Assembly: GCF_914768025.1 (NCBI RefSeq)
Contig: NZ_CAJZCE010000011.1
Location: 1 to 64,000, forward strand
Direction of reading: 5' to 3'
Length of the DNA stretch: 64,000 nucleotides
From: Snodgrassella gandavensis
GTDB taxonomy: Bacteria; Pseudomonadota; Gammaproteobacteria; Burkholderiales; Neisseriaceae
Shown: positions 2,043 to 64,000 of the stretch, in pieces
Position numbering within the stretch: the first letter of the stretch is position 1
How the letters are laid out: the number at the start of each line of letters is the position of its first letter
Position numbers and translations under genes: made by a program
Notes under the pieces: model-generated
What the model was told of the DNA's origin: nothing
Seen by the model: the letters and a program-made list of their open reading frames with translations, nothing else
Database searches by the model: none

Positions 2043-2053
2043 TTTCGGAATTC

Positions 2054-2140: not shown

Positions 2141-2188
2141 TTATTCGCTACTGCAACTATTATATTGCTGCGTTCAGCGAAGTTGTGC

Positions 2189-2810: not shown

Positions 2811-2845
2811 AAAAAAAGATATCTAATCACTTAGATATCTTTTTT
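2811..2845 (-). terminator. Terminator of tRNA-Leu copy 2
   Basis: The same hairpin as at 2010-2042: stem 2817-2826 with 2831-2840, loop 2827-2830, flanked by A7 and T runs. It was duplicated together with the tRNA gene. Confidence 0.8.
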
Positions 2846-2853
2846 CGGAATTC

Positions 2854-2940
2854 TGGTGCCCAGGAGAAGACTCGAACTTCCACACCATTGCTGGCACATG
2901 GACCTGAACCATGCGCGTCTACCAATTCCGCCACCTGGGC
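2854..2940 (-). tRNA. tRNA-Leu(CAG), copy 2
   Basis: An 87-nt copy identical to 2054-2140, with the same anticodon CAG and encoded CCA. It lies divergent from rnr, and its promoter reaches to within 7 bp of the rnr start codon. Confidence 0.95.
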
Positions 2941-2993
2941 TTTTGCATATATTGCAACTTTCAGTTAAAGTACGTCTTTAACTGAGGAAATGC

Positions 2994-3021
2994 ATTATAT
3001 ATTCTCTAAAGAGATTGTCAA
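2994..3021 (-). promoter_or_regulatory. Sigma-70 promoter of tRNA-Leu copy 2
   Basis: Minus-strand TTGACA (3021-3016) and TATAAT (2999-2994) with 16-bp spacing, matching the copy 1 promoter. The -35 element ends only 6 bp before the rnr ATG, so RNA polymerase here would cover the rnr translation start region. Confidence 0.75.
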
Positions 3022-3027
3022 TACCCT

Positions 3028-49638: not shown

Positions 49639-50904
49639 TTACTTAATGCGTGTTAGTACAGCGGCAAAAAAGCCGTCTGTATGATGTTCACTGGTATTCA
49701 ACTGCAAATAATCACTCTGCATGGATGGCAAAGCAATACCCTTGAGCAATGTATGTACCGGTTCAATATGCCAGCCTGTATTAGCGGCCAGAAAATCATT
49801 TAACGGCTGCTGATTTTCAGCCTCCAGAATACTGCAAGTAGCATATACCAGTCTGCCACCTGAGCGTACCAGAGCAGAAGCAGCCTGCAAAATCGACCGT
49901 TGCTGTTGCTGCAATGCCTGTACATTGTCACCACTCTGACGATATTTTAAATCAGGATTGCGCCGCAAAGTACCCAGCCCGGAACAGGGAGCATCCACCA
50001 AAACACAATCCGCCTTACCTTTCAAGCGGGCAATACGCGCATCATGTTCATTATCAATGCGTTGCGGATGAATATTGGTCAAACCGGCACGCACCATACG
50101 TGGTTTTAGATTAGCCAAACGTTTTTCTGCCACATCCAGCGCATATAAGCGTCCGCTGCCTGCCATCATCGCGCCCATTGCCAGAGTTTTACCGCCAGCA
50201 CCAGCACAAAAATCTACTGCAATCTGCCCACGTTTTACGCCAGTTAACAGAGCCAGTAACTGGCTGCCTTCATCCTGTACTTCCAGCACACCATCCAGAA
50301 ACAACGGGTGACGGTTTAATGCTGGTTTATCATACAATCGGATTCCCCAAGGTGAATAAGGAGTAGCTTCTGCGCGTAAGCCTTCTGCCTGTAGCGCAAC
50401 CAAAACCTTATCACGTTTACCTTTCAGGGTATTAACCCGCACATCCAGCGGCGCTGCCTGCATCACACTGCGGCCATAAGCAATAATCTGATTCTCATTC
50501 CAGTCCTGCTGCTGCAAACAGTCAATCAGCCATTGAGGCAGTTCGGCAGCAGTTGTCAGCGTAGCAGCAAAATCAGACTTGTGCTGCTTTAATTCAACCA
50601 GCCACTGCTTTTCTTCAGCATCACATAAGCTTTCCACTGCATGAATACTTAAACCGCGCCCTAAAACCAGTGCCGCCAGAGCAGCACGGCGTGGCTTGTT
50701 ATGAGGTCTGGGCAGCATTTTCTGGATTTTCTGCAAGTGACGAATAGTAGCAAATACAGTTTCGGCTATTTCATGCCGGTCACGTACACCCAGCTTGCGC
50801 TGGCGCCGGAAAAAGGTCGACAACACAACATCTGCCGGCTGTCTGAACGTTAACACCTGAGCCAGAGCAGCAGCTGTCAAATCAAGTTGTTGCGCATTTA
50901 TCAT
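49639..50904 (-). CDS. rsmB: RsmB/NOP-family rRNA (cytosine-C5) methyltransferase
   Basis: A 421-residue SAM-dependent m5C methyltransferase of the RsmB/NOP family. An N-terminal NusB-like helical region (about 1-130) is followed by the Rossmann core: VDFCAGAGGKTLAMGAMM, then LVDAPCSGLGTLRRNPDLKYR (Cys that helps release) and VYATCSILEAEN (catalytic Cys). In E. coli, RsmB modifies 16S C967. The N-terminus is less canonical than E. coli RsmB, so a sister methyltransferase is possible. It is 6 bp after the DUF3108 gene. Confidence 0.85.
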   Translation of the reverse strand: MINAQQLDLTAAALAQVLTFRQPADVVLSTFFRRQRKLGVRDRHEIAETVFATIRHLQKIQKMLPRPHNKPRRAALAALVLGRGLSIHAVESLCDAEEKQWLVELKQHKSDFAATLTTAAELPQWLIDCLQQQDWNENQIIAYGRSVMQAAPLDVRVNTLKGKRDKVLVALQAEGLRAEATPYSPWGIRLYDKPALNRHPLFLDGVLEVQDEGSQLLALLTGVKRGQIAVDFCAGAGGKTLAMGAMMAGSGRLYALDVAEKRLANLKPRMVRAGLTNIHPQRIDNEHDARIARLKGKADCVLVDAPCSGLGTLRRNPDLKYRQSGDNVQALQQQQRSILQAASALVRSGGRLVYATCSILEAENQQPLNDFLAANTGWHIEPVHTLLKGIALPSMQSDYLQLNTSEHHTDGFFAAVLTRIK

Positions 50905-50910
50905 AATTTC

Positions 50911-51585
50911 TTAAATAGCCTTCCCGTCAATTTGGCCACCTTTCAGTTGCAAGGTATAAACCTTACCATTATCCATATAGCTAATCTGTACCGGAATATT
51001 CTCAAACTGTGGCGCAAAAGCATATTCCACCACATCATCACCACGACTGATACTGTACTGGCTAATATCAATTTGCCGGCCATTAACCAGCAGTTGTGCA
51101 TTGCCACGACTACGAACTGCATCCAACAGGTAAACTTTTTTGCCATTAGTCAGATAGGTATTTGCGGGCAATTTACCGTGATTAAAGCCCAGTTGCCAGC
51201 CAAGTGCAAACATATCGTATACCGGTCCGTTTACCGCCATATGCTTACTGGCTTCAGAAACCTTACCATAATCAATACCCTGTTCAGTAAAGCGCGCCTG
51301 TGCATAAGGTTTACCAAAGCGACTATCCGTATAGGAAAGCGGATTCAGGGTAGAACCATTTACCGTACCAGTAGAAACAAATTGCATTTGGTAAAAAATC
51401 AGATTAATTTGGGTATTAATCCAGTACTGCTCACCTTGCTGTACAAAGTCCATACTTACCGGCAAACCATAACTGTCTACAAACTGCAATTGTGCCCGTT
51501 GCGGCAAATCGGCAGCCCGCACTACTGGTAGCAATAGTAAACTTACCCAAGCAAGCAATATACCCAGCCAGAATTTTACTTTCAT
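50911..51585 (-). CDS. DUF3108 exported protein
   Basis: A 224-residue protein with a signal peptide (MKVKFWLGILLAWVSLLLLPVVRA) and a beta-rich body typical of DUF3108 (NPLSYTDSRFGKPYAQARF, VYDMFALGWQLG, VYLLDAVRSRGNAQL, VEYAFAPQFENIPVQI). The family is periplasmic and of unknown function. It sits between purN (17 bp) and rsmB (6 bp) in an operon, an order seen in related bacteria. Confidence 0.82.
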   Translation of the reverse strand: MKVKFWLGILLAWVSLLLLPVVRAADLPQRAQLQFVDSYGLPVSMDFVQQGEQYWINTQINLIFYQMQFVSTGTVNGSTLNPLSYTDSRFGKPYAQARFTEQGIDYGKVSEASKHMAVNGPVYDMFALGWQLGFNHGKLPANTYLTNGKKVYLLDAVRSRGNAQLLVNGRQIDISQYSISRGDDVVEYAFAPQFENIPVQISYMDNGKVYTLQLKGGQIDGKAI

Positions 51586-51602
51586 ACTTCTCTCATAGCA
51601 TA

Positions 51603-52235
51603 CTAATTTTTCAGGAAAATCGAATCATCTATATCAACCATAGACAAATTACTAACTCGATTACCCTCTACAACCAGCTTGCCAGCAACAAAATCAGCCA
51701 CTGCCTGTGGTAATAACTCATGCTCAACCCGCAATACCCGCTGCGCTAGAGTATCAGCAGTATCGCCACCTAGAACAGGTACAACGCCCTGAACAATAAT
51801 CGGGCCACAATCCAGTTGTGCAGTGACAAAATGAATGGTACATCCCGCCACCCGGCAGCCACTGTCCAGCGCCCGCTGATGCGTATGCAGTCCGGGGAAA
51901 GCAGGCAATAAAGATGGGTGAATATTAATCAGCCTGCCGGCATAATGTTCACAGAATTCAGGCGTCAAAATACGCATAAAGCCAGCCAGCACCACCAGAT
52001 CCGGCTGATAAGCATCAATTCGCGCCATAAGAGCGGTATCAAACGCTTCACGGCCGGCATAATCCTGATGGCAGACTGCCTCAGTGGCCAGACCGCGCTG
52101 TGCAGCCCACTGCAAACCAGCTGCATCAGCTCGATTACTGATTACTGCCACCACTTCTGCCTGCGCAATATCCGCCTCCACCACAGCCTGCATATTACTG
52201 CCACGCCCAGAAATCAGAATCACAATTCTTTTCAT
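51603..52235 (-). CDS. purN: Phosphoribosylglycinamide formyltransferase
   Basis: A 210-residue GAR transformylase of purine synthesis using 10-formyl-THF. It has VILISGRGSNMQAVVEA, VLAGFMRILTPEF, INIHPSLLPAFPGLHT (catalytic Asn/His) and VAGCTIHFV with the conserved Asp later in QLDCGPII. The ATG at 52235 gives the usual length; the longer frame to 52352 adds 39 unrelated residues and overlaps murI. Confidence 0.96.
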   Translation of the reverse strand: MKRIVILISGRGSNMQAVVEADIAQAEVVAVISNRADAAGLQWAAQRGLATEAVCHQDYAGREAFDTALMARIDAYQPDLVVLAGFMRILTPEFCEHYAGRLINIHPSLLPAFPGLHTHQRALDSGCRVAGCTIHFVTAQLDCGPIIVQGVVPVLGGDTADTLAQRVLRVEHELLPQAVADFVAGKLVVEGNRVSNLSMVDIDDSIFLKN

Positions 52236-52266
52236 ACCGCTTATTTTTCTCCTGCCAACAGAAAAC

Positions 52267-53076
52267 CTAGCCCAAAGATACCATTTCCAACTGTTCGAGG
52301 CTACGCCCAAGAAACCGTTCCCCGATTGTCTGGAATCGCAGAGGAATATCACTTACATAGAAACGGTATTGCGCCCCCGTGTGATCCGGATTAAGCAACT
52401 GCTGCTGTTGCAGTGCCTGTGCCGTTGCCTCTGCCGTCGTAATTGCTGAATCAACCAGTTTCAGTTCAGGTGCTTCCTGCCGGATTAATGATTTAAGTAA
52501 TGGATAATGAGTACAACCCAAAACCAGCGTATCCACATCTTCCGCCAAAATCGGCTTTAAATATTCTCTGGCAGTCAAGCGTGTTACTTCATGATCCAGC
52601 CAGCCTTCTTCCACCAGTGGCACCAATAAAGGACATGCCTGTGAAAATACACGTGTTTGTGCATTCTGCTTATGAATCGCCCGGGCATAAGCATTACTAT
52701 TGACAGTGGTACTGGTAGCAATCACACCGATGTGATTATTCCGTGTTGTTTCCAGTGCAGCCTTGGCACCGGCATCAATCACATCCAGTACTGGCATACC
52801 ACCGGCCAGTTGTCTTATCTTTTCCCGTGCCACAGCAGCTATGGTATTACAGGCCACAACCAGAGCCTTAACATCATGTTCCAGCAGAAACGACACAATC
52901 TGTTCGGTATAAACTTCAATTGTGTGTCTGGATTTCACCCCATACGGAACCCGTGCCGTATCACCAAAATAAATAATATTTTCATTAGGCAGCCGTTCCA
53001 TCAAAGCCCGAACCACAGTCAGGCCGCCTACTCCGGAATCAAATACACCTATCGGGCGTTGTTGTAGTGCAATCAT
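52267..53076 (-). CDS. murI: Glutamate racemase
   Basis: A 269-residue racemase supplying D-glutamate for peptidoglycan. It has IGVFDSGVGGLTVVRAL, ALVVACNTIAAVA (first catalytic Cys) and VLGCTHYPLLKSLI (second catalytic Cys). The start MIALQQRPIGVFDSG at 53076 is taken over one 9 codons upstream. First gene of a co-directional set murI-purN-DUF3108-rsmB-grxD-upp. Confidence 0.95.
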   Translation of the reverse strand: MIALQQRPIGVFDSGVGGLTVVRALMERLPNENIIYFGDTARVPYGVKSRHTIEVYTEQIVSFLLEHDVKALVVACNTIAAVAREKIRQLAGGMPVLDVIDAGAKAALETTRNNHIGVIATSTTVNSNAYARAIHKQNAQTRVFSQACPLLVPLVEEGWLDHEVTRLTAREYLKPILAEDVDTLVLGCTHYPLLKSLIRQEAPELKLVDSAITTAEATAQALQQQQLLNPDHTGAQYRFYVSDIPLRFQTIGERFLGRSLEQLEMVSLG

Positions 53077-53309
53077 TTGTCTCTTTATCTGTAGCCATGA
53101 CACTCAATACACCACGTACTGAATCCGTCACAAGCCAGTTATCATTGCGATTATAGCATTGACCCGAAAATATACTCATAGTACAAATCCAGCCAAATAG
53201 GCTTAAAACCGGCTTTTAGCCTGCAACCTGACAAATCGGCAGAACTTTACTACTTTCACTCTTACAAACTTTATCGCATAATAAACCCGTTTTGTTAATT
53301 AAACATACC

Positions 53310-53780
53310 ATGTCTGCATCTCAAATCCGTGAAATCGTTCTGGCCGGCGAAAACGATACCCTGAATCTGGGCGCCCGTTTTGCCCAGCATATCAGCCCGC
53401 CTTTAATCATCTGGCTAGTAGGAGACTTAGGTGCGGGCAAAACCACCTTTACCCGCGGTCTGCTCAACGCACTGGGTCATCATGGCGCAGTTAAAAGCCC
53501 CACATACAATATAGTTGAAACCTATCCATTTAGCGGATTTCACCTGCATCATTTTGATCTATACCGTTTTCAAAGCCCGGAAGAATGGCTGGATGCAGGA
53601 CTGGATGAACTCATCACCGCAGATAGCATTGTTCTGATTGAATGGCCGCAACTCGGTGGCGATCTGGCTCCGTCGGCTGATATCATCCTGAACATTACTG
53701 CTAATAGCAGTGGCCGCACAGTGCAGATGAGTGCTGCCACAGCCAATGGCACACACATCCTAGACAAGATTACAGAATAA
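53310..53780 (+). CDS. tsaE: tRNA threonylcarbamoyladenosine biosynthesis protein TsaE
   Basis: A 156-residue ATPase required for t6A37 in tRNA. The P-loop is WLVGDLGAGKTTFTRGLL, then VKSPTYNIVETY and HHFDLYRF, and IVLIEWPQLGG. The ATG at 53310 is preferred over the TTG at 53292. It is followed after 3 bp by amiC, the order common in Neisseriaceae and other proteobacteria. Confidence 0.95.
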   Translation: MSASQIREIVLAGENDTLNLGARFAQHISPPLIIWLVGDLGAGKTTFTRGLLNALGHHGAVKSPTYNIVETYPFSGFHLHHFDLYRFQSPEEWLDAGLDELITADSIVLIEWPQLGGDLAPSADIILNITANSSGRTVQMSAATANGTHILDKITE

Positions 53781-53783
53781 ACC

Positions 53784-55103
53784 ATGCCTAACCATATCAG
53801 CCGCCGAAAATTGTTACTTGCTTCTACCGGCACGCTATTAATCAGCCTTACCCCGTTTGCGCGTGCCGCCAAAGCTGGCGCAGACATCGTGGCTTCGCGT
53901 ATCTGGCCAGCCACAGCCTATACCAGAATGACGCTGGAATCCACAACACCTATCCAATTTAAATACTTTCAACTCAAAAACCCTGACAGACTGGTTATCG
54001 ATATTCAGGGCTCAGCCACCAATCAGGTCTTGCGTGAACTGAGCAACAAAGTCATTCCCATGGATCCGTATATTGCCAGTGTTCGCATCGGGCAATTCAA
54101 TCCCGAAACCATACGTATCGTAATGGACTTGAAAACGACCGTTAATCCACAGATATTTTCGTTGACGCCAGTAGCCAATTTCAAAAACCGGCTGGTAGTG
54201 GACTTATACCCCACCGCCACAGTAGCCATGGAACAGGAAAAAAACGATCCATTAATGGCACTTTTACAGGACTATAGCCACGGCAAGGTCAACAGTGACG
54301 GCACCACACGCCCACAGGCCACCGCTTCTACGCCTCCTGTACAAAAACCGCGTGAAAGCAAGCCGCCAGTTATCAACCAACCCCCAACATCAGGCAAGCC
54401 GAATAAATTCAACCGCCAGCCGGTTATCATGATTGATCCGGGACATGGTGGTGAAGACCCCGGTGCCACAGGCCCATCCGGCTTGCATGAAAAAGATGTG
54501 GTACTGGCTATTGGACGCGAAGTAAAAAAAATACTGGACTCCAATGGCTACAAAACCTACATGACCCGAAACGAAGACATATTCATTCCGCTAGGTGTGC
54601 GCGTAGCCAAAGCGCGTAAACTCAGAGCCGATGTATTTGTTTCCATCCATGCCGATGCATTTACCAATCCATCCGCCAAAGGTACCGGTGTATACGCCCT
54701 TAATCCCAAAGGTGCCACCAGTGCAGCAGCCAAATATCTGGCACAAACCCAGAATGCAGCCGATTCAATTGGTGGCGTAAGTTACTCCACCGATAAAAAT
54801 GTCAACAACACCCTGTTTGACCTTACCCAAACAGCAACCATCAACGACAGCCTGAAACTGGGCAAGGATGTTTTAAATCAGCTTGGCAAAATCAATAACC
54901 TGCATAAGGGCAGTGTCGATCAGGCTAATTTTGCCGTTCTGAAAGCGCCAGATGTCCCATCTATACTGGTTGAAACCGCTTTTATTTCCAATCCGATTGA
55001 AGAACGATTACTATCAAGCAGCAATTTCCGTCAGAAAATGGCCAATTCCATTGCCAGCGGTATTAAAGATTACTTATCTACAGCAGTCTTGGCACGTCGT
55101 TGA
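53784..55103 (+). CDS. amiC: N-acetylmuramoyl-L-alanine amidase AmiC-type
   Basis: A 439-residue zinc amidase that splits septal peptidoglycan. The N-terminus SRRKLLLASTGTLLISLTPFARA looks like a Tat signal (twin Arg), as in AmiA/AmiC. An AMIN domain (about 35-140) is followed by a Pro/Gln/Thr linker (about 155-205), then Amidase_3 (about 210-435) with IDPGHGGEDPGATGPSGLHEK, VFVSIHADAF and SILVETAFISNP (zinc ligands His, Glu, His and catalytic Glu). It is translationally close to tsaE. Confidence 0.95.
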   Translation: MPNHISRRKLLLASTGTLLISLTPFARAAKAGADIVASRIWPATAYTRMTLESTTPIQFKYFQLKNPDRLVIDIQGSATNQVLRELSNKVIPMDPYIASVRIGQFNPETIRIVMDLKTTVNPQIFSLTPVANFKNRLVVDLYPTATVAMEQEKNDPLMALLQDYSHGKVNSDGTTRPQATASTPPVQKPRESKPPVINQPPTSGKPNKFNRQPVIMIDPGHGGEDPGATGPSGLHEKDVVLAIGREVKKILDSNGYKTYMTRNEDIFIPLGVRVAKARKLRADVFVSIHADAFTNPSAKGTGVYALNPKGATSAAAKYLAQTQNAADSIGGVSYSTDKNVNNTLFDLTQTATINDSLKLGKDVLNQLGKINNLHKGSVDQANFAVLKAPDVPSILVETAFISNPIEERLLSSSNFRQKMANSIASGIKDYLSTAVLARR

Positions 55104-55603
55104 TAGCAATGAATCATTTACTTCTTATATATTAATCAATACTGCAATTCTGGTATAAATGGCCAATGAAATGACACTTTTACAGCCTGAATATCTGTTT
55201 TGCGACAGCAATTAAACTTCTCTTTTCGACGTTTAATTACTGGCTTGACTGACAGTCTGTTAGTATTTTTATTACAGTACAAAATAGCGTTTTTATTAAA
55301 TGACAATTTAATTTATCGCGCTGGGTGCTTGGAGAAATTAAATATTATTGATTTAAGCTGCAACAAAAATTACAGCTTAATGATTGAATTAGATTGAAAA
55401 TAATCTAACATTGAACTCAAGACAAGAATATCGAATACCGATTGCAGAATGTATTTCAGCCTGCAATCGGTAATTCGCAGATAAAAATATAATGATTAAT
55501 TGTTGCTCAGAAATAAAGGCTAACGAAAAAGCTGCGAGACAAATCGATTATTATTTAGCAGCAAAATATTGCATAAAATTACTTAAATATTACTTCGCAA
55601 CCA
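55104..55603. other. Junction between amiC and the prophage
   Basis: 500 bp, AT-rich, with no gene seen. It should contain the right end of the Mu-like prophage and any phage-host junction, which I cannot pinpoint. A long inverted repeat (TACCGATTGCAG near 55436-55447 with CTGCAATCGGTA at 55461-55472) has no T tail and could be a regulatory or end-binding site. Confidence 0.45.
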
Positions 55604-56245
55604 TCAAATATGAATAGCATCATTCCATAAATCAAATATTTGCTTTTCATTCAGAAGCAGAACATCAGTTAAAAATTTCCACCAATTATGATTATCCAAC
55701 GAAAAACTTTGCGTTTCCACAATGTAATTGCGAATCTTAATTAATTCTATACCTGACATTGCATTTTCTGCAGCTTCAACCAGAGCTTGCTTATTTTTAC
55801 CTAAGCTAATTTCCAACTGAGAAAGCATTTGCATGCGAGACAAAGTACCGGCAGTGCTGCGTTTATTCTGTAAACGTAACTGTGCAGCATCAGCTTTTTC
55901 TACCCAGCTATTCGCTTTCTCTGACCACTGATGATAAATATCAGGGCAAGGCATGGTGGTAACAGTAGCCGGTAATACGCCCGGTTCATCTATTGCTACG
56001 ACTTCTCCGGTTTCCTTGCTGTACACCGTTTCACCTCGATGGTCTTCGATATATTGCCAGTTATCGCCTGTCCATTGTGCAATAAAGCCTTTTTTAGACA
56101 CCGGTTCTTCAGCCTGAATACACAGTCTGGGAATCAGATAATGGCCATTATTTTCCAGAGGATCCAAATCTGCTGTAGTCATGCCAACAAAGTAGTTGTT
56201 TTCGTCTAATTGGCATACAGGAATAGTTTGTGCATAGATTTCCAT
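55604..56245 (-). CDS. Phage tail-fibre assembly protein (intact copy)
   Basis: A 213-residue protein following the second fibre gene by 10 bp. The N-terminal half (MEIYAQTIPVCQLDENNYFVG, HYLIPRLCIQAEEP, WQYIEDHRGETVYSKETGEV) is shared with a broken copy at 57314-57634. The C-terminal half is a helical region (about 115-213) with LSQLEISLGKNKQALVEAAE. Position and the IEDHRGETVYSKETGE pattern fit fibre-assembly chaperones of Mu-like and other tailed phages. I infer that it helps fold or attach the fibre tip. Confidence 0.7.
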   Translation of the reverse strand: MEIYAQTIPVCQLDENNYFVGMTTADLDPLENNGHYLIPRLCIQAEEPVSKKGFIAQWTGDNWQYIEDHRGETVYSKETGEVVAIDEPGVLPATVTTMPCPDIYHQWSEKANSWVEKADAAQLRLQNKRSTAGTLSRMQMLSQLEISLGKNKQALVEAAENAMSGIELIKIRNYIVETQSFSLDNHNWWKFLTDVLLLNEKQIFDLWNDAIHI

Positions 56246-56255
56246 TTTTTATTCC

Positions 56256-57152
56256 TTAAATTTTGATACAAGCTAAAAGTGACACGTTGCGCGGTCGGTT
56301 TTCATTTGCAGTAGGCACACATAAAGATGCATCAAAACCGATAACTGTCAGATAATTTGAAGAACCTACATTAACTGCTCCTCGTTGCAAATAACACTCA
56401 ATAGATTTAAATGCGCCTTTATTTCTATTATAAATGTTACCTAATGTCTGAACATGTAAAGGCTCAGATTCTCCTGTAATATTACGTATTGCATCTACCT
56501 GCGTGTCACCAAATATCCGACCTGTATCAACCCCACGCCCATCATCCCAGCCACGTAAAAACTCTCCACGCAAATCCGGTAAATTAAATGTAGTTTTACC
56601 ATCTCCCGCACCAAATCTAGTGCCAATAGCTGCAAACAAATTAGTATATAGTGTACGGGATATTGTCGCGCCGTTGGCTTTTAACCAGCCTACTGGCACA
56701 GAATCCATGGCAAAATACTGTACTGTACCTGATGGGGTGGCATTAATATCCTGAGAACCGTCGAATGGCAAACCATTAATCTTGCATGGTTTGTATAACT
56801 TAGATGCAGTAACCGCATTACCATCCTTATCCAACTTGCTGTCATTCAGGGCTTTACCCTGTCGTGCAGATAATGCTGAAAGTTTGTCATTAGAATTCAG
56901 CGTGTCAATTATCTTGGTTACACCGGCAATATCAGCAGTTGCGGCTGCTGGCGTATTTGATGCTATTAACATTTTTATTGCTGTTATTACCTGATTCTGT
57001 GTGGCCTTTTCCGGCTTGATACCAGCTGCGGCCAGAATGGCAATTAATTCAGTCTGCACCTGATTCAGCCAGCTTGCTGGCAATACAGTGCCCAGTTCGT
57101 TTATTCCGTTACCATCATGAAACAGTCCGTCTTGCGTATCAATTGGATACAT
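56256..57152 (-). CDS. Tail fibre / tail-collar protein, copy 2
   Basis: A 298-residue fibre protein. Residues 1-115 are almost the same as in copy 1 (57645-58499) and should be the baseplate-binding part. A phage tail-collar domain follows (about 140-215: FAMDSVPVGWLKANGATISR, GDGKTTFNLPDLRGEFLRGW). The C-terminal about 85 residues differ completely from copy 1 (VDAIRNITGESEPLHVQT... to RPRNVSLLACIKI) and are probably the receptor-binding tip. It is preceded by a gp48-type relic and followed by the intact assembly gene. Confidence 0.85.
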   Translation of the reverse strand: MYPIDTQDGLFHDGNGINELGTVLPASWLNQVQTELIAILAAAGIKPEKATQNQVITAIKMLIASNTPAAATADIAGVTKIIDTLNSNDKLSALSARQGKALNDSKLDKDGNAVTASKLYKPCKINGLPFDGSQDINATPSGTVQYFAMDSVPVGWLKANGATISRTLYTNLFAAIGTRFGAGDGKTTFNLPDLRGEFLRGWDDGRGVDTGRIFGDTQVDAIRNITGESEPLHVQTLGNIYNRNKGAFKSIECYLQRGAVNVGSSNYLTVIGFDASLCVPTANENRPRNVSLLACIKI

Positions 57153-57298
57153 TTCTTATTTGTCCTTATATGTAAATCGTATGTCGGTAAATGCTGGTTT
57201 CAGCTCTTTTAATACAGTTTCAATTATTACATCACCATATGCTGTCAATCTGTCGCCAGCCGTTGACATCCCAGCACGAAAGTGGGTTGCGCGACTAT
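56820..57298. repeat. Direct repeat, copy 2, about 480 bp
   Basis: It matches 58167-58645 with only a few mismatches, at a constant offset of 1347 bp. It covers the 5' part of fibre gene copy 2 and the 3' tail of a gp48-type gene. It could support recombination or gene conversion between the fibre cassettes. Confidence 0.9.
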
Positions 57299-57340
57299 CG
57301 GTATTCTTGAATCTTAGTGATAACCGCCAGTATTCGATGT
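57156..57340 (-). pseudogene. gp48-type (DUF2313) tail gene fragment
   Basis: The DNA is nearly identical to the 3' part of the gp48-type gene 58503-59069: NTDSRATHFRAGMSTAGDRL and on to FTDIRFTYKDK then TAA at 57156-57158. Upstream of this it is joined to a short piece coding RILAVITKI, which lies about 50 residues earlier in the intact gene, in a shifted frame. So it is a copy with an internal deletion and a frameshift at the junction. It marks the duplication unit boundary. Confidence 0.85.
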
Positions 57341-57634
57341 AATTATGGTAACAGTGGGTGGTAATACACCGGCTTCTTCAGTCGATATTATTTCTCCGAT
57401 TTCCTTGCTGTATACCGTTTCTCCACGATGATCTTCGATATATTGCCAGTAATCGCCTGCCCATTGTGCAACATGCCCTTTTTTAGGCTTTGGTTCTTCA
57501 ATCTGCATATATAGTCTAGGAGTCAGATAATGGCCATTATTTCCCAGAGGATCCAAGTCCACAACAGTCATATCAACAAAATAATTTCCCTCATCTAGTT
57601 GACAAACAGGAATAATTTATGCATAGATTTTCAT
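57314..57634 (-). pseudogene. Broken copy of the tail-fibre assembly gene
   Basis: It starts MKIYA then TAA (57617-57619), where the intact copy has MEIYAQ, so CAA became TAA. Beyond it the frame reads IIPVCQLDEGNYFVDMT, NNGHYLTPRLYMQIEEP and WQYIEDHRGETVYSKEIGEI, the same as the intact gene (55604-56245). It ends early where it runs into the gp48-type fragment, so the C-terminal half is absent. It follows fibre copy 1 by 10 bp, so copy 1 has no intact partner of its own. Confidence 0.85.
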
Positions 57635-57644
57635 TTTTTATTCC

Positions 57645-58499
57645 TTAAATTTTGATACAAGCTAGTAACGCCATATTTTTTGGTCGAGTTTCCGATCCGC
57701 CACTACTACTAACCCAAATATCTCTGCCAATTCCAACTGTTGACAGTTCTGCGCCAGTAGTAATAGGTTTTACTATTCCAGCATTAACATTCTTAAACTG
57801 TGGAAGTATATGACTGTGTGACTCGAATATATCTTTTTGGTAAGTACCAAAAATTCGACCCGCATCAATTCCACGACCATCATCCCAACCTCGCAGGAAT
57901 TCTCCACGTAAATCCGGCAAATTAAATGTAGTTTTACCATCTCCTGCACCAAATCGTGTACCGAGAGCTGCAAATAGATTTGCATATGTTGTACGTGATA
58001 TGGCTGCACCATTAGCCTTTAACCAGCCTGTAGGTGCCCAGTCAATGGCAAAATAATGAACTGCACCAACAGGTGTAACATTTATATCCATACTACCATC
58101 AAACGGCACACCATTAATTTTTCGTACTGTTTTCAATCTGGATGCGGTATCAGCAGTTTTAGCGGTACCATCCTTATCCAGCTTGCTGTCATTCAGTGCT
58201 TTACCCTGTCGTGCAGATAATGCTGAAAGTTTGTCATTAGAATTCAGCGTGTCAATTATCTTGGTTACACCGGCAATATCAGCAGTTGCGGCTGCTGGCG
58301 TATTTGATGCTATTAACATTTTTATTGCTGTTATTACCTGATTCTGTGTGGCCTTTTCCGGCTTGATACCAGCTGCGGCCAGAATGGCAATTAATTCAGT
58401 CTGCACCTGATTCAGCCAGCTTGCTGGCAATACAGTGCCCAGTTCGTTTATTCCGTTACCATCATGAAACAGTCCGTCTTGCGTATCAATTGGATACAT
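57645..58499 (-). CDS. Tail fibre / tail-collar protein, copy 1
   Basis: A 284-residue fibre protein. The N-terminal 115 residues match copy 2 almost exactly (MYPIDTQDGLFHDGNGINEL...). The collar domain (about 140-205) is similar but not the same (FAIDWAPTGWLKANGAAISR, GKTTFNLPDLRGEFLRGW). The C-terminal end is unlike copy 2 (YQKDIFESHSHILPQFKNVN... to RPKNMALLACIKI), with an HSH motif as in many fibre tips. The start at 58499 is 3 bp after the gp48-type gene's stop. Confidence 0.85.
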   Translation of the reverse strand: MYPIDTQDGLFHDGNGINELGTVLPASWLNQVQTELIAILAAAGIKPEKATQNQVITAIKMLIASNTPAAATADIAGVTKIIDTLNSNDKLSALSARQGKALNDSKLDKDGTAKTADTASRLKTVRKINGVPFDGSMDINVTPVGAVHYFAIDWAPTGWLKANGAAISRTTYANLFAALGTRFGAGDGKTTFNLPDLRGEFLRGWDDGRGIDAGRIFGTYQKDIFESHSHILPQFKNVNAGIVKPITTGAELSTVGIGRDIWVSSSGGSETRPKNMALLACIKI

Positions 58500-58645
58500 T
58501 TCTTATTTGTCCTTATATGTAAATCGTATGTCGGTAAATGCTGGTTTCAGCTCTTTTAATACAGTTTCAATTATTACATCACCATATGCTGTCAATCTGT
58601 CGCCAGCCGTTGACATCCCAGCACGAAAGCGGGTTGCGCGACTAT
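58167..58645. repeat. Direct repeat, copy 1, about 480 bp
   Basis: Partner of 56820-57298. It spans the 5' part of fibre copy 1 and the 3' end of the gp48-type gene. Confidence 0.9.
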
Positions 58646-59069
58646 CAGCATTTTTAACGTTTACCCACCATACCCACATAATGTCTTCACGCGCCAGTCT
58701 GTCACCGGCACGACTGATACCCACTCGGAATGGCTGCGGCTCGGTTATGGTGGTGTCGTAGCCAATTGAAGCGGCCATCTGCATAAAATAGGGAATACTC
58801 AAACCACCGATTTCATTGATTTTGGTGATAACTGCCAATATTCTTTGCTGGCCGTTTATGCCGGTGCTGTCCAGATTGAGCAATTCCTCCCAGCGCATGA
58901 TGTAATTTTCCGATGTGCGTGGGTCAATAACGCCCAGTTTACGACGAGCAGCATTTTGTATTTCATCCAGACAGTTGCCATCAATTGTGGCGGCATTTCT
59001 TACTGCCGGTGCAGTACGGTTGTATGCAACCGGAGGTAATAATCCCAATAAAGTATTGACGTAACTCAT
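58503..59069 (-). CDS. Mu gp48-like tail protein (DUF2313/YmfQ)
   Basis: A 188-residue protein of the YmfQ/Mu gp48 family: SYVNTLLGLLPPVAYN at the start, RRKLGVIDPRTSENYIMRWEELLNL and GGLSIPYFMQMAASIGYDTTITEPQPFRVG. It is a baseplate or tail-tip component in Mu-like phages. It overlaps the gp47 gene's stop by 4 bp. A truncated copy of its 3' end lies at 57156-57340. Confidence 0.88.
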   Translation of the reverse strand: MSYVNTLLGLLPPVAYNRTAPAVRNAATIDGNCLDEIQNAARRKLGVIDPRTSENYIMRWEELLNLDSTGINGQQRILAVITKINEIGGLSIPYFMQMAASIGYDTTITEPQPFRVGISRAGDRLAREDIMWVWWVNVKNADSRATRFRAGMSTAGDRLTAYGDVIIETVLKELKPAFTDIRFTYKDK

Positions 59070-60124
59070 AGTAAACTCACATCAACCTTACCCAGCCTAA
59101 ACCATTCAATCTTTTTGCTTGTCTCTGCGATTAGATTGGCTGCTGGCTGAGTCATCTTGCGATCGGTCACACCAGACACATCACTGATTACCGCTTCCAG
59201 CTGGGATGCAATCACGCTATCACCAGGCTTTAAAGCGCTGAAATGCTCCTGCAAGGCCTGTCGGATATCTGCTGTCGTCCTGTCAAGGTTTACATCGGAC
59301 AAACGCACTTTAACTTTAATATCAACTCTGGTGACATCTGGCTTGATAACAAAGCTGTTTTTAGCCGTTACCGGTCGCACTGAATCAATATAAGCCTGTA
59401 CTTTGCTGACTATCTCATCACTGGGTAAATAATTATTGCTGGTAATGACAATATCTACCGTACCAAGCCCGCGGCGTAATGGGTATACATATGCACTGGT
59501 AACGCCATCCACGCTCAATGCCCAGGCCCGATAATCATATTTATTGCCTCCGGCAGGTGGCCGACGCAACAAATCCAATAAACGGTTCAATAATGAAGTA
59601 TCGCTTTCAACATCAGTACCACCGGTAGCTTGTATGATTTCCACATCGCTGGATATACCTATCGGTGCAGCCATAAATTGTGCTGCTTTATTATGCTGAT
59701 TTGATGCAGAACCAGCCTCATGCGCCTGTATGGATAAAACAGCAGTACCCTCATTACCAATCACTGCCTGTTGCTGCACAGTATATAAATGTTCACCACA
59801 TATAATTTGTAATTTTGCTTCAATTAATGATCCTTCAATACCATGAGCAATAGCGGTTCCGCTGGCGGAAGTAGCATGTTTACGGCGTATACCACGCAGA
59901 TTACAATGTCTCTCTAGAAATTCTGTGTCCGCAGTATCCGGAAAAAACTGTCTTAAGATCCATGCCTGATGAGCATATTGTCCCGTGGCACAACTGGCCA
60001 GATTGCTGGCGCGAATATAATTATCACTATCTGAAGAAACATCAGCTTTAGGGTTTAATGAAACCATATCACGCAAAATAGCGTGGCGTATTTCCTCAAA
60101 TGTTGGAATATTGTGCATTTTCAA
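59066..60124 (-). CDS. Mu gp47-like baseplate J protein
   Basis: A 352-residue baseplate J-like protein: IPTFEEIRHAILRDMVSLNP, RQFFPDTADTEFLERHCNLRGI, TDVESDTSLLNRLLDLLRRPPAGGNKYDYRAWAL and the C-terminal wedge region. It forms baseplate wedge parts. It lies between gp46- and gp48-type genes, as in Mu. Confidence 0.9.
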   Translation of the reverse strand: MKMHNIPTFEEIRHAILRDMVSLNPKADVSSDSDNYIRASNLASCATGQYAHQAWILRQFFPDTADTEFLERHCNLRGIRRKHATSASGTAIAHGIEGSLIEAKLQIICGEHLYTVQQQAVIGNEGTAVLSIQAHEAGSASNQHNKAAQFMAAPIGISSDVEIIQATGGTDVESDTSLLNRLLDLLRRPPAGGNKYDYRAWALSVDGVTSAYVYPLRRGLGTVDIVITSNNYLPSDEIVSKVQAYIDSVRPVTAKNSFVIKPDVTRVDIKVKVRLSDVNLDRTTADIRQALQEHFSALKPGDSVIASQLEAVISDVSGVTDRKMTQPAANLIAETSKKIEWFRLGKVDVSLL

Positions 60125-60143
60125 AATCCATTTAATTATTTTT

Positions 60144-60494
60144 TTAAATTACTTTAACCGGACACTCAAATATAAATTTTTCTCCAGTTAATTGCGTTAT
60201 CTGTATACTCAAATTCAGCATGCCATTATGTGGTTGCATGGTGGCGACAGAAATATCTGCTGCACGCCCATCATCAATAATTGGCTGTAAAGCCTGTTGC
60301 GCATACTGTTTGGCTAGTAAGCTAACTGATTGCAAATCTTTTTCCCGTTCAAGCGTATACAACAGTGAGCCTAATTTTTTATCCGCCCAATAACTACCCA
60401 GCGGTGTCATCAGACGCAGATAAACTGCATTTTGTAAGTGGTTTATAATCTGTCCGGTGTAATCACCTGTTCTGGTGTCTATTTCTCTATCCAT
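60144..60494 (-). CDS. Mu gp46-like baseplate protein
   Basis: A 116-residue GP46-family protein: REIDTRTGDYTG at the start, VYLRLMTPLGSYWADKKLGS and the C-terminal strand IQITQLTGEKFIFECP. It is a wedge initiator similar to T4 gp25. It is followed by gp47 after 19 bp. Confidence 0.88.
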   Translation of the reverse strand: MDREIDTRTGDYTGQIINHLQNAVYLRLMTPLGSYWADKKLGSLLYTLEREKDLQSVSLLAKQYAQQALQPIIDDGRAADISVATMQPHNGMLNLSIQITQLTGEKFIFECPVKVI

Positions 60495-60572
60495 AAACTA
60501 CTCCGGTTATGTTATTTTTATAGTTTACTAAAATAACTATTTTTATCTGAATCTGAAGAGCTTCAGCTGCTA

Positions 60573-61253
60573 TCAGACAGGCTTGCCCACTCTGACTGCA
60601 TGATCATGGCTTGCCAGACTGATTCCACTGGCTTTAACATCGCCGACAGTGGTATAGCTACCATTAGTTTGTACAATATTGCCTGAAAATGTTGCCCCTT
60701 GTCCTCCTTTGATATCCATTCCGCCATTACCATTGATCTGGCCTGCGGCAGTGATTTCCTGCGAGCAATTAACATTTTGGGCACTGATATTCACTCCCGC
60801 CTGAGCATCGATATTAATGCCAGCCGCAGCCTCAATTTTTACTCCTGCCGGTGCTTTAATATTTAAAGTTTCACAATCAATCTCAATCAGTTTGCCATTT
60901 TTTAAGGTAATAGAGGCACCAGACTGGTTATAAACAGCTACTTCTCCTGCAGCCAGTGCTTTAATCCGGTATTCACCATGCTCAGTGGCAATGATAATGC
61001 CATGACTGGTCTGACCACTTAAAGGCAAAACAATAACTTCCGAGCCCACGGGCGGATTACTGGTAAAACCAAATTGCTGTATCTGCTCCACATCCTGTAA
61101 AACCTCATCGGCCAGAGCTGCTACCTGAGCAGATTGAATCGGCTGCGAGGCATTTACCCGTGTCAGCCTGCCTCGAAAAGCCTGCCGGACTGAGCTGGTG
61201 GTATTATTAATTGTCGTTCTGGTTTTATTTACCAGCTTCGCAACATAACTCAT
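60573..61253 (-). CDS. Mu gp45-like baseplate spike protein
   Basis: A 226-residue membrane-piercing spike protein. The OB-fold N-terminal part (about 10-110, with VGSEVIVLPLSGQTSHGIII) is followed by a triple-stranded beta-helix-like repeat of short strands (NIKAPAGVKIEAAAGINIDAQAG). The C-terminal HDHAVRVGKP has an HxH like the iron site at the tip of Mu gp45. The start at 61253 has a GGAGAG site; a TTG at 61265 would add four residues. Confidence 0.87.
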   Translation of the reverse strand: MSYVAKLVNKTRTTINNTTSSVRQAFRGRLTRVNASQPIQSAQVAALADEVLQDVEQIQQFGFTSNPPVGSEVIVLPLSGQTSHGIIIATEHGEYRIKALAAGEVAVYNQSGASITLKNGKLIEIDCETLNIKAPAGVKIEAAAGINIDAQAGVNISAQNVNCSQEITAAGQINGNGGMDIKGGQGATFSGNIVQTNGSYTTVGDVKASGISLASHDHAVRVGKPV

Positions 61254-61297
61254 CTGACTCTCCAATTAAAATTTATTCCAATTAAATATATACGCTG

Positions 61298-62437
61298 TTA
61301 TATCTTGACCTGTTTTATCTGCCGGTTAGTCACACCTTTACGTTTCCCTTTACGTGATCGTGCTGCTGCAGATTTTTTAACATAAGCATCTGGCGTCCAT
61401 ATTCCATCCTCTTTTAAGCGCAGTTCAGTCAGCGTGCCGCCACTTCGATTCAGTAAAAAACGGCGTCCCATCAGAAAAAAAATGGCATCTATCTGCTGTT
61501 CTTCATCAATCACATGCACACGTTGTCCGGGTTGCCACAACAGGCCATCCTGAGTTTTATGATCTGCAACCGTAATGGTTAAAGTGAAACCTTCCAGATG
61601 CCAGTCAGAAAGCATTTTTTTTGCCTGCACCTTCAACTGTTCCAGATTTTCTGCATCACCGATTACTACTGTTTTCGGCTTGTATAAAACCATTGTTTCG
61701 TCTTTGTATACCCATTTCAAATCATGTTTTGACGAATTGGCATAACGGGTGTGACTTTGGCCAAGAAAGGTCACTTCCGAGTAACGATTTTCAGTACTAT
61801 ACTCAATATGAATATTTTGAATATTACGTCGGCGATCATTTTTACTGTGGCACAGGGTTGCCACTGGTGGGCTGGCATAATCAGCACCACCAACAACCAG
61901 CGTACCATCTGGTTCCAGCCACACATGCAGGCCAGCTTTATAGGCAATTTTGCTCAATGCCTGCCATGCAGTTTCCCCGGGTTCGATATCTACTTTGTCC
62001 AGAACTGGATTTTTTTCAGCTTTTAATATCACTTTTTTGATTTGTGGCCAGGGTTCAACTATCTTCTGTGCTGCAGCTAAAACATTCATTCCTTTAACAT
62101 TAATTTGTTTAACACTGCAATCCACCAGCAAACCGGCAAGGTCACGGCCATTAAAACCGATACTATGGTTGTTTTTATCAACCATTTCACTCTGATGGCC
62201 AATAATTCCGGTCATAACCAACTGGTTATTAATTAAAACTTCACATTGCAAGGAGCTATAGTCGGCCAGAACACCCTGATTTTGAGAAACATTGGTTTCA
62301 AAACTGAAGGCATCAGCAGGAATCAGAAAATCACTGTCAATATCATAGCTAAGCCAGTCTTTATGTTCTTTCCCCCCTATTCTTACTACCACTTCATTGC
62401 CATATGGATAAGGCAACATTTCAGTTTCATTTAACAT
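61298..62437 (-). CDS. Mu gp44-like baseplate hub protein
   Basis: A 379-residue hub protein (Mu gp44 / gpD-like, T4 gp27-like). It has VVVRIGGKEHKDWLSYDIDS, SIGFNGRDLAGLLVDCS and GETAWQALSKIAYKAGLHVWLEPDGTLVVGG, and a basic C-terminal tail (SRKGKRKGVTNRQIKQ). The start at 62437 (MLNETEMLPYPYG) has a GGA site and overlaps the gp43 gene by 11 bp; an ATG at 62455 would add six residues. Confidence 0.85.
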   Translation of the reverse strand: MLNETEMLPYPYGNEVVVRIGGKEHKDWLSYDIDSDFLIPADAFSFETNVSQNQGVLADYSSLQCEVLINNQLVMTGIIGHQSEMVDKNNHSIGFNGRDLAGLLVDCSVKQINVKGMNVLAAAQKIVEPWPQIKKVILKAEKNPVLDKVDIEPGETAWQALSKIAYKAGLHVWLEPDGTLVVGGADYASPPVATLCHSKNDRRRNIQNIHIEYSTENRYSEVTFLGQSHTRYANSSKHDLKWVYKDETMVLYKPKTVVIGDAENLEQLKVQAKKMLSDWHLEGFTLTITVADHKTQDGLLWQPGQRVHVIDEEQQIDAIFFLMGRRFLLNRSGGTLTELRLKEDGIWTPDAYVKKSAAARSRKGKRKGVTNRQIKQVKI

Positions 62438-63755
62438 AATAATTAATCCACTCATTACGCTGAATAAATGATGGATGGCACAAATGAGGATTAAGGCGCA
62501 TTAATTCATTTGCCCGCTCAATATCCCGATAAAGTAAATATGCCAACTGATGAATGGTGCCGTTAATATCTGCTTTTCTGGTACGCATTGGCGGTTTCTG
62601 ATTAATGACGGCCAAAGCATAGTCATTAAATTGTGCGGCCATATTGGCCAGCAACTGAATCATTATCTTCGTTTGCGTATAAATATTGGCAGCATTAATG
62701 CTTTTGACATTATCAGCATAATCATAAGTTTCACGTAAAATATCTATTAATTTTTGAATACGCAGACGAAGATTATTATTTATATACAGCAACTCATTTG
62801 CTGTCACTATGTCACTATTCGCTTCAATCATCGTGACGGTATTCTGTATCAAAGCACCAATACTCAAGAATTGCAGAATCTGGGCAATCGGTTGCATCTG
62901 AATATCAGCAATCTTTTGTACATGATTGATCGCCTCTTCCTCAGTTTCCTGTCTATCCTGACTATACAGAATATTATCAGGCAATTTATTCAGGCCATCT
63001 ACACGGTTACTGACAGAATCAAAAGTCTGTCTGGTAGTTAAACTGCCAGTAGCAAACTGTGTATCACTCGCTAGACCTGTTGTCACCATTGTGGCTACAG
63101 AATGAATCAGTCTGCTGACGTCCTGACTGTAAGATGCAGAAGAAAAAGCTTTACTGGTCAAATACTTTATAGGATCAAGATCGAAAAAGCGGCGAACACT
63201 GCCAGCTACGCCACACAATGCGGCAAATACACCATTTGTACTGCCCCATAAAGACGAAATTCCCTCCCGAACGCTTAACAGCGTTTCAGAATAACCCAGT
63301 AACTGCTGTGTATACTTTTCCAGAGTATTCTGTATCTGTTCTAACTTGGCTAACCACTGATTCTCAAATAAAAATATCGGAGCAGACTCTTTTGCTTCAA
63401 AAAAAGTGATATCCAGTGCAACATAATTAACTGAATCCGCTTCAGTACGAAATGACCAGCTTGCGGCAATCATATTTTGTAACAGGCCTAAAACCGGATG
63501 AACTAATGTGCCTGCACCTGGTTCCTCTAGCACAGCCAGTAACTGTGATAACTGTGTATCAAAGCCTGCACCAAAATAGACAGCAGCAACCTGACATTGT
63601 CGTCCCTGTGTACCCAAATCCTCAATATCGGTTCCATTTGCAAACGGACGGCCATGCCGTACCAGTGCTTTCTCATTTTTATCACTGATAGAAATGACAT
63701 CAAAGGCAACATTTTTGTAACTGGCCTTTTGCAGATTATTCTTCCACATAGTCAT
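62427..63755 (-). CDS. Mu gp43-like DNA-circularisation/tail protein
   Basis: A 442-residue protein with the DNA-circularisation N-terminal domain of Mu gp43: WKNNLQKASYKNVAFDVIS, ALVRHGRPFANGTDIEDLG, YFGAGFDTQLSQLLAVLEEPGAGTLVHPVLG. The C-terminal half is helical. In Mu this protein links the tail and hub. The ATG overlaps the tape-measure stop (TAATG), with a GGAGG site upstream. Confidence 0.87.
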   Translation of the reverse strand: MTMWKNNLQKASYKNVAFDVISISDKNEKALVRHGRPFANGTDIEDLGTQGRQCQVAAVYFGAGFDTQLSQLLAVLEEPGAGTLVHPVLGLLQNMIAASWSFRTEADSVNYVALDITFFEAKESAPIFLFENQWLAKLEQIQNTLEKYTQQLLGYSETLLSVREGISSLWGSTNGVFAALCGVAGSVRRFFDLDPIKYLTSKAFSSASYSQDVSRLIHSVATMVTTGLASDTQFATGSLTTRQTFDSVSNRVDGLNKLPDNILYSQDRQETEEEAINHVQKIADIQMQPIAQILQFLSIGALIQNTVTMIEANSDIVTANELLYINNNLRLRIQKLIDILRETYDYADNVKSINAANIYTQTKIMIQLLANMAAQFNDYALAVINQKPPMRTRKADINGTIHQLAYLLYRDIERANELMRLNPHLCHPSFIQRNEWINYYVK

Positions 63756-64000
63756 TATTGTGCACCTCCACGGTTATACATTTCCATCTGATTGCGTGAA
63801 ACCAGATTGCTAATCACTCTGCCATCAAGCGTCACCGTAAGATTATTCTGAATAACCTGTTGCTGGTTCGAGAGAATAGTAGCTATTTTGTCTAAACGTA
63901 TCCCCAACTCCTGTACAACAGCCTGAAAAGCATTTTGAAATTCAGCACTTTGCTGCACAAGCATAGGCTGCCCAGCACCAGACTGGCTTTCTATTGCGGG
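63755..64000 (-). CDS. Tape-measure protein, C-terminal end (partial)
   Basis: An open frame runs from beyond the window edge to a TAA at 63755-63757. The 81 visible residues begin PAIESQSGAGQPMLVQQSAE and contain VQELGIRLDKIATILSNQQQ and TVTLDGRVISNLVSRNQMEM, typical of the C-terminus of tape-measure proteins. It lies directly upstream of gp43, as in Mu. The start is outside the window. Confidence 0.75.
   Translation of the reverse strand, partial: PAIESQSGAGQPMLVQQSAEFQNAFQAVVQELGIRLDKIATILSNQQQVIQNNLTVTLDGRVISNLVSRNQMEMYNRGGAQ

What the first reader, a model, noticed from the sequence alone, without database searches (positions are those of the whole stretch)
55604..59069. Duplicated tail-fibre cassette with shared 5' end and divergent tips
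Two fibre genes share a near-identical N-terminal part within a 480-bp direct repeat (offset 1347 bp) but carry unrelated C-terminal tips. A broken assembly gene and a deleted gp48 copy lie between them. Recombination between the repeats would delete one fibre or swap tips, so this may be a host-range switching or diversification locus. The more distal fibre has an intact assembly gene; the proximal one does not.
Basis: seen in the sequence. Interest (0 to 1): 0.7.

Follow-up and report, generated by a model that had tools for sequence, protein, structure and literature searches.

The report
Bee-symbiont tailocin carrying two fibre alleles
A bee gut bacterium carries headless phage tails that probably serve as weapons against rival strains, and in this strain one tail has two alternative binding fibres side by side, one of which has lost its own helper gene but still looks functional.

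Summary
In detail: two intact fibre genes (A 57645-58499, B 56256-57152, minus strand) share a 481-bp direct repeat (478 identical, offset 1347), with a broken assembly gene and a deleted gp48 piece between them. The setting is not a headed prophage but two contractile tail modules (P2-like, Mu-like) without head genes, at one chromosomal place in several Snodgrassella genomes: most likely a double tailocin. The tips differ only in an internal 60-80 aa. A-type and B-type fibres each occur behind gp48, with an intact assembly gene, in other strains (L048, L051; L052). Best explanation: recombination put two interchangeable alleles in tandem; both look selected, and the surviving assembly protein probably serves both. 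The dead assembly gene has decayed but the repeat has not, suggesting recent gene conversion. Programmed switching is unlikely: repeats are direct and no Resolvase-family invertase was found in this genome; a crossover would delete fibre A. Tip exchange is known in Pectobacterium and Pseudomonas tailocins; no Snodgrassella tailocin was seen in the papers listed or opened.

The parts
55604..56245 (-). asmB: intact tail-fibre assembly (chaperone) gene, 213 aa
   Evidence: PHROG tail fiber assembly E 9e-24; no Pfam match at 0.001
56256..57152 (-). fibB: distal fibre, 298 aa; Mu-S-like start, collar, B-type tip
   Evidence: Pfam Collar 3.1e-23; same allele behind gp48 in L052 at 96%
56819..57299 (-). 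repeat copy B: end of gp48 remnant plus start of fibB
   Evidence: 478 of 481 identical to copy A
57156..57342 (-). gp48 remnant: 3' end plus a short decayed internal piece, joined to the assembly remnant
57343..57634 (-). asmA remnant: assembly gene with early stop and lost 3' half, decayed at all codon positions
57645..58499 (-). fibA: proximal fibre, 284 aa; A-type tip
   Evidence: Pfam Collar 2.7e-23; same allele behind gp48 in L048 and L051 at 95%
58166..58646 (-). repeat copy A: end of intact gp48 plus start of fibA
58503..59069 (-). gp48, intact
   Evidence: Pfam Phage_Mu_Gp48 6e-19
59066..64000 (-). rest of the Mu-like contractile tail module inside the window (gp47 J, gp46, gp45, gp44, gp43, end of tape measure); it runs on to gp37 at C11 about 69.7 kb, then the P2-like module to about 83.6 kb
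53784..55103 (+). amiC, chromosomal flank of the tail locus
   Evidence: matched in 14 of 14 Snodgrassella-genus genomes; flanks tail modules in sister genomes

Best explanation
The region is the fibre end of a double tailocin (two headless contractile tails, P2-like and Mu-like) fixed in the Snodgrassella chromosome. Strains exchange the receptor-binding tip of the fibre by homologous recombination, using the conserved fibre start/collar on one side and the conserved fibre end/assembly gene on the other (shown by comparison). In this strain an incoming B-type fibre cassette was added next to the resident A-type one instead of replacing it. The join ran through the resident assembly gene and left the asmA/gp48 debris (structure shown, route inferred). 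Both fibre genes stayed intact; the surviving assembly protein most likely folds both, giving particles with A fibres, B fibres or both, hence a wider set of recognised strains (inferred). The 481-bp repeat was copied between the two units after asmA had decayed, so it remains a recombination substrate (supported, not proven); its simple crossover product is loss of fibre A with B kept.
For: Tail-only: two sets of sheath, tube, tape measure and baseplate genes and no recognised capsid gene between amiC and DUF441. Portal_Mu and Terminase_6N are each without a match in this genome. Of 14 genus genomes, 5 carry both modules here (one with a contig break before DUF441), 2 Mu-like only, 1 P2-like only, 2 have the empty site, 4 are unresolved. 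Alleles: A behind gp48 in L048 and L051, B in L052, each with an intact assembly gene. Fibre A is a mosaic: against L050, gp48 87-97%, fibre start 95-100%, collar 97-100%, then 82% falling to 47-65% in the tip; against L048, fibre start 83-95%, collar and tip 90-100%. Selection: fibA collar and tip against L048 and L051 dN 0.01, dS 0.05-0.15, base changes 2,3,15 and 2,3,16 by codon position; asmA private changes 9,9,6 against 8,5,23 pooled over nine intact copies, Fisher p 0.004. Shared helper: assembly proteins beside five different collar-type tips are 89-93% identical to asmB in six close relatives; App4-8 (G002) has a Mu-module fibre with no adjacent assembly gene. Repeat copying: the dead gp48 piece inside the repeat differs at 1 of the 143 bp tested, just outside it matches at 25 of 32; P 5.5e-5 if it had aged like asmA.
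Against: No expression, particle or killing data. No lysis gene was recognised: Phage_lysozyme matches 0 of 14 genus genomes; a second endolysin search was uninformative, since its controls were silent too. No LexA-type box in L005 or L006. The tandem form is seen in one assembly only; its junction 30-mer is in 0 IMG/VR contigs. The assembly protein of a more distant strain with a clustered tip (L130) is only 54% identical to asmB, and collar-less fibres have a different 147-aa helper, so sharing may be limited. The A-type tip may have been swapped in after asmA died, so the selection contrast may cover different times. asmA could have decayed elsewhere and arrived dead, which would weaken the gene-conversion argument; at half the decay rate the probability is 0.016. 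The two AlphaFold models were too poor to use.
Confidence: 0.6

Rival explanations
1. The tandem is a neutral, short-lived by-product of allele replacement: fibre A is on its way out and will be lost by crossover between the repeats, leaving a clean B cassette.
For: Debris of former assembly genes lies after an intact one in the P2-like module of 3 of the 6 genus genomes in which that module was mapped (G002, G009, G010); the tandem is found in 1 of 7 genomes with the Mu-like module at this place and a visible downstream flank; the crossover product would look like the B cassette of L052.
Against: asmA has had time to decay (24 private changes in 288 bp) while fibA stayed open and conserved. 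Arrays of three or four fibres exist in seven other tail loci.
Confidence: 0.25
2. A programmed switch: the repeats serve a dedicated recombinase that swaps or inverts tips.
For: A long, nearly perfect repeat sits at the fibre start, as in invertible fibre loci.
Against: Repeats are direct, and one search found no inverted repeat pair (25 bp or more) in 50000-64000. The Resolvase family has no match in this genome, with 10 of 14 controls ringing. Sister strains differ by replaced tips, not by orientation. Tyrosine recombinases were not searched for.
Confidence: 0.04
3. Two decaying prophages side by side, no longer functional.
For: Pseudogene debris; no lysis or regulator gene recognised in the locus; IMG/VR lists such regions as viral contigs.
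Against: The genes compared are full length or nearly so in five genomes at the same place (the P2-like J gene was not in that comparison). Six backbone proteins of nine close loci are 91-99% identical to the window's at dS 0.04-0.57; a tenth, distant one (L130) 76-90% at dS 1.3-2.0. No head genes appear in those genomes' intervals.
Confidence: 0.06
4. Assembly artefact merging two strains.
For: Draft genome (45 contigs), nearly identical 481-bp repeat, single observation.
Against: The asmA/gp48 junction does not lie in the repeat, carries its own internal deletion and old substitutions, and so is not what collapsing or bridging a repeat would make; contamination estimate 0.2%.
Confidence: 0.05

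Closest known systems
Carotovoricin tail-fibre loci of Pectobacterium (PMC13195805; outline with abstract, Results section in two parts, and found passages seen)
   Same: Tailocin cluster at one conserved chromosomal place; conserved fibre start, variable C-terminal part; genus-wide exchange by homologous recombination.
   Different: About half of those clusters (172 of 365) carry the invertase ein; here no Resolvase-family gene was found, and two alleles sit as direct tandem copies with one assembly gene.
R-type syringacins of Pseudomonas syringae (PMC6331570; passages seen)
   Same: Localised recombination of receptor-binding protein and chaperone against surrounding genes that follow the strain tree; the pair sets the killing spectrum there.
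   Different: No tandem copy in the passages seen ('duplicat' has 0 occurrences); in close Snodgrassella relatives the helper does not track the tip.
Xenorhabdicin (PMC13280938; passages seen)
   Same: Authors suggest that fibre variants may use a common chaperone; fibre C-terminus variable; no invertase gene in the locus.
   Different: Different host; a tandem array with decayed helper was not in the passages seen.
Double tailocins of Pseudomonas chlororaphis (seen only as passages in the review PMC12090994 and in PMC13280938)
   Same: Two divergent tailocins in one cluster.
   Different: There a shared lysis cassette is described; none was recognised here.
Phage Mu tail fibre S and phage T4 gp12 (PDB sequence hits)
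   Same: Fibre start matches Mu S (5yvq, 8ju3); collar, tip and end match T4 gp12 (1ocy) to residue 196 of 198.
   Different: Combined in one short 284-298 aa fibre; weak sequence similarity (E 5e-12 to 2e-3 over the 8 hits).

Membership tests
R-type tailocin (headless contractile phage tail) | Complete contractile tail gene set (sheath, tube, tape measure, baseplate, fibre) | tested here: met
   Two sets
R-type tailocin (headless contractile phage tail) | No head, packaging or integration genes | tested here: met
   None recognised in the locus (the P2-like J and E genes and ORFs under 80-100 aa were not scanned). PHROGs calls two small proteins 'portal' and the P2-like tube 'head closure'; Pfam names the two small proteins Phage_Mu_Gp37 and Gp37. 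Portal_Mu and Terminase_6N have no match in the genome; other terminase and integrase families were not searched genome-wide.
R-type tailocin (headless contractile phage tail) | Fixed chromosomal place shared by related species | tested here: met
   Tail modules in the amiC to DUF441 interval in 8 of 10 genus genomes that could be judged, 2 empty, 4 unresolved
R-type tailocin (headless contractile phage tail) | Lysis genes for release | tested here: inconclusive
   None recognised in the locus; Phage_lysozyme 0 of 14 with 3 of 14 controls ringing; Glyco_hydro_108 search uninformative; holins and other lysis families not searched.
R-type tailocin (headless contractile phage tail) | Particles that kill related strains | not testable with these tools
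   Needs induction, microscopy and spot tests
Invertible tail-fibre locus (Gin/Ein type) | Inverted repeats and an invertase gene | tested here: not met
   0 inverted pairs of 25 bp or more in 50000-64000; Resolvase family 0 matches in this genome, 2 of 14 in the genus
Temperate Mu-like prophage | Head genes and a whole phage genome at the site | tested here: not met
   Tail genes only between chromosomal flanks; Portal_Mu without match in this genome
Temperate Mu-like prophage | Transposase | not tested
   No genome-wide transposase search was made

The most novel reading that the evidence does not exclude
The Snodgrassella genus keeps one common pool of fibre tips that moves freely between two tailocin modules and its own prophages. 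The window catches the step by which a tailocin becomes multivalent: a second allele is added in tandem, its fibre start is kept identical by gene conversion, and one promiscuous assembly protein serves all fibres, so the other assembly gene is free to decay. Longer arrays of three or four fibres in other tail loci would be the later stages of the same process.
Probability: 0.3. Interest if true: 0.68.

Novelty: new member of a known kind. Interest (0 to 1): 0.5.

Why it matters
Snodgrassella is a core honeybee and bumblebee gut symbiont; the antagonism papers met deal with its type VI secretion system. Searches for Snodgrassella with tailocin (2 papers, both opened by passages: the words come from unrelated places), phage tail-like (6 papers, 2 opened by passages: reference-list hits only), bacteriocin (62 papers, 15 listed) and prophage (36 papers, 25 listed) showed none that describes a tailocin in it, in titles, abstract starts or passages seen. 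A fixed, double, tip-exchanging tailocin would be a second, long-range weapon with a readable specificity code. The tandem form gives a natural test of whether one tailocin particle can use two fibre types with one helper, and of how single-fibre weapons become multi-fibre ones.

Tried and rejected
Structure prediction of fibres A and B gave pLDDT 36 and 41; not used, and no fold search was run on them. A promoter scan found no excess over shuffles (17 against 17.2) and no terminator-like site on the coding strand between the two fibres. LexA-type box (motif recalled): 0 in L005 and L006. A Neisseria-like DNA-uptake word did not stand out among k-mers of the first 55 kb, so natural transformation is not supported by that test. 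Glyco_hydro_108 search: controls silent, no conclusion. A search of annotated phages with the locus gave only short partial matches (best 10% of the query covered). The 7 other loci with fibre arrays could not be given a host name; an order-wide search (399 genomes, drawn from a larger group) with their fibre start matched 7 genomes, and only G000 had two matches within 2 kb. Papers: searches; passages seen in PMC9239279, PMC10259446, PMC12366320, PMC6331570, PMC12090994, PMC13280938, PMC12208367, PMC12354948, PMC11237606, PMC8125069, PMC5727410; abstract, Results section and passages of PMC13195805; all other papers listing only.
Full report
WHAT IS THERE. On the minus strand the order is gp48 - fibA - asmA remnant - gp48 remnant - fibB - asmB - 500 bp - amiC. 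The repeat covers the last 144 bp of gp48, a 3-bp spacer and the first 334 bp of each fibre. Outside it the two units are old relatives: collar 77% identical protein with dS 1.3, tips 36%, last 18 residues 61%; assembly DNA about 80%.

THE SETTING IS A DOUBLE TAILOCIN-LIKE LOCUS. Upstream of the fibres lies a Mu-like contractile tail module (gp47 to sheath and gp37), and beyond the window a second, P2-like one with its own fibre (fibC) and assembly gene (asmC), ending at a DUF441 gene. No capsid, terminase or true portal gene was recognised in between. PHROGs labels two small proteins 'portal', but Pfam names them Phage_Mu_Gp37 and Gp37. Portal_Mu was found in 3 of 14 and Terminase_6N in 4 of 14 genus genomes, not in this one. 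amiC is matched in 14 of 14 and DUF441 in 13 of 14. In the 10 genomes where the interval can be judged, G000, G002, G003, G009 and G010 hold both modules (G002 with a contig break before DUF441), G008 and G013 Mu-like only, G006 P2-like only, G004 and G007 neither; G001, G005, G011 and G012 are unresolved. I infer a tailocin. Lysis genes were not recognised (uninformative), which is a real gap.

FIBRE ANATOMY. By sequence profile the fibre start matches the phage Mu tail fibre S and the rest matches T4 gp12, in the case of 1ocy up to residue 196 of 198. So the tip is an internal, variable part of a gp12-like receptor-binding head whose end is conserved; this gives homology on both sides of the tip. 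AlphaFold models were unusable.

ONE SLOT, MANY TIPS. I clustered the tips of 37 fibre proteins (ORFs of 180 aa or more in the loci listed; some are the same strain in two collections) at 60% identity: 13 clusters. Six contain proteins with the Mu-like fibre start. Four of 13 clusters occur on more than one fibre start: the A tip (TIP1), the B tip (TIP3) and TIP5 each on the Mu-like start, the P2-like start and a third start (MSKNP...), TIP4 on the first two. The A tip is also on the fibre of a Mu-like element in G003 (contig C3) that has Portal_Mu about 17 kb upstream on the same strand. Tips therefore move between tailocin modules and at least one element with a head gene; whether the MSKNP elements have heads was not tested.

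THE TWO ALLELES ELSEWHERE. L048 and L051 carry the A-type fibre (95% over its length) and L052 the B-type (96%), each directly behind gp48 and followed by an intact assembly gene. These three IMG/VR contigs end at the end of that assembly gene, so a further fibre downstream cannot be excluded there. Fibre A is a mosaic: against L050 gp48 runs at 87-97%, the fibre start at 95-100% and the collar at 97-100%, then identity goes through 82% to 47-65% in the tip; against L048 the fibre start is 83-95% and the collar and tip 90-100%. The B-type collar is at dS 0.11 from L052 although six backbone genes of L052 are at dS 0.40-0.55, as expected if the B cassette crossed between lineages; against this, the B tip itself is at dS 0.40. 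Seven genus genomes have the Mu-like module at this place with a visible downstream flank: one (this) has two fibres, six have one.

IS FIBRE A ALIVE? Its collar and tip differ from L048 and L051 at 2,3,15 and 2,3,16 bases by codon position, dN about 0.01 against dS 0.05-0.15. The neighbouring asmA has 24 private changes spread 9,9,6, against 8,5,23 pooled over nine intact copies (Fisher p 0.004), and 26 amino-acid-changing codons against 2-8 in intact copies. So the helper has been free to decay while the fibre has not, unless the A tip was swapped in later. Assembly proteins that go with five different collar-type tips in six close relatives are 89-93% identical to asmB; L048 and L049, with different tips, differ at only 7 of 288 bases, L048 and L051, with the same tip, at 24. 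The helper therefore does not track the tip among them, and asmB can plausibly serve both fibres. Limits: the more distant L130, whose tip clusters with that of L049, has an assembly protein only 54% identical to asmB, and the TIP4 fibres, which lack the collar, have a different 147-aa helper. App4-8 (G002) has a fibre in its Mu-like module with no assembly gene beside it but has one in the P2-like module.

HOW IT AROSE AND WHETHER IT STILL RECOMBINES. The structure fits an incoming gp48-end/fibre/assembly segment that recombined by homology on its far side and joined illegitimately inside the resident assembly gene on its near side; this is inference. The dead gp48 piece inside the repeat differs from the live gp48 at 1 of 143 bp tested, while just outside the repeat it matches at only 25 of 32 and asmA has 24 private changes in 288. 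If all had aged together, 1 or fewer differences has probability 5.5e-5 (0.016 at half the rate). Hence the repeat was probably copied between the units after the debris decayed. The alternative is that the debris arrived already decayed. The window's closest backbones (L050, L128) have different cassettes with one fibre visible. The Resolvase family has no match in this genome (2 of 14 in the genus; 10 of 14 controls ring), so a Gin-type invertase is not at hand; tyrosine recombinases were not searched for.

PROBABLY OUTSIDE SNODGRASSELLA. A self-comparison of 256 loci (some from the same contig) for direct repeats of at least 150 bp and 80% identity, 600-3500 bp apart, found the window and 11 other loci. 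In seven of those (L105, L116, L117, L118, L121, L125, L126; 61-64% G+C against 44% in the window) three or four fibres with a shared start follow the same gp37-to-gp48 order; in five of the seven a fibre-like end lies just before gp37 (ORFs looked at in L117 and L126). L178, L220, L260 and L278 were not followed. These arrays support multi-fibre tails as a recurrent form. Their hosts could not be named.

COMPARISON AND VERDICT. Works like: recombining tail-fibre loci of carotovoricin (PMC13195805) and syringacins (PMC6331570), with the common-chaperone idea raised for xenorhabdicin (PMC13280938) and prophages carrying tailocin-like fibres reported in P. syringae (PMC12208367). PMC13195805 also names multiple fibre genes within tailocin loci as a known way to widen the target range. 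So the kind is known; this is a new host and a clear tandem, helper-sharing instance. It is not an invertible locus and not a headed prophage. No paper among those listed or opened was seen to describe a Snodgrassella tailocin; opened by passages were PMC9239279, PMC10259446, PMC12366320, PMC12354948, PMC11237606, PMC8125069 and PMC5727410, and the lists were cut.

Noticed in passing
L117 10832-18290 (also L105, L116, L118, L121, L125, L126): Arrays of three or four tandem fibre genes with a shared start behind a Mu-like tail module, some with their own assembly gene; host not named.
   Followed up: partly
L005 17721-18071 and 18237-18585 (plus strand): A putative lipoprotein gene and a second, apparently broken copy on the opposite strand inside the P2-like module; no Pfam or PHROG match for the first. 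Could be an immunity or release factor (guess).
   Followed up: no
L031 3608-4242 (App4-8): Mu-like module whose fibre has no adjacent assembly gene; the P2-like module has one.
   Followed up: partly
L027 18563-18679; L029 17126-17386; L031 16740-16856: 3' ends of displaced assembly genes left behind an intact, different one in the P2-like module: debris of earlier cassette swaps.
   Followed up: partly
L247 (G004) and L248 (G007): Empty amiC-DUF441 site in two genus genomes, showing the state without tail modules.
   Followed up: yes
L053, L054 (Mu-like start) and L246 13626-14831 (P2-like start): Very similar collar-less tip and 147-aa helper on two unrelated tail types.
   Followed up: partly
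window 1998-2218 and 2800-3023: Direct repeat of about 225 bp at 85% identity near the start of the window, outside the tail locus.
   Followed up: no
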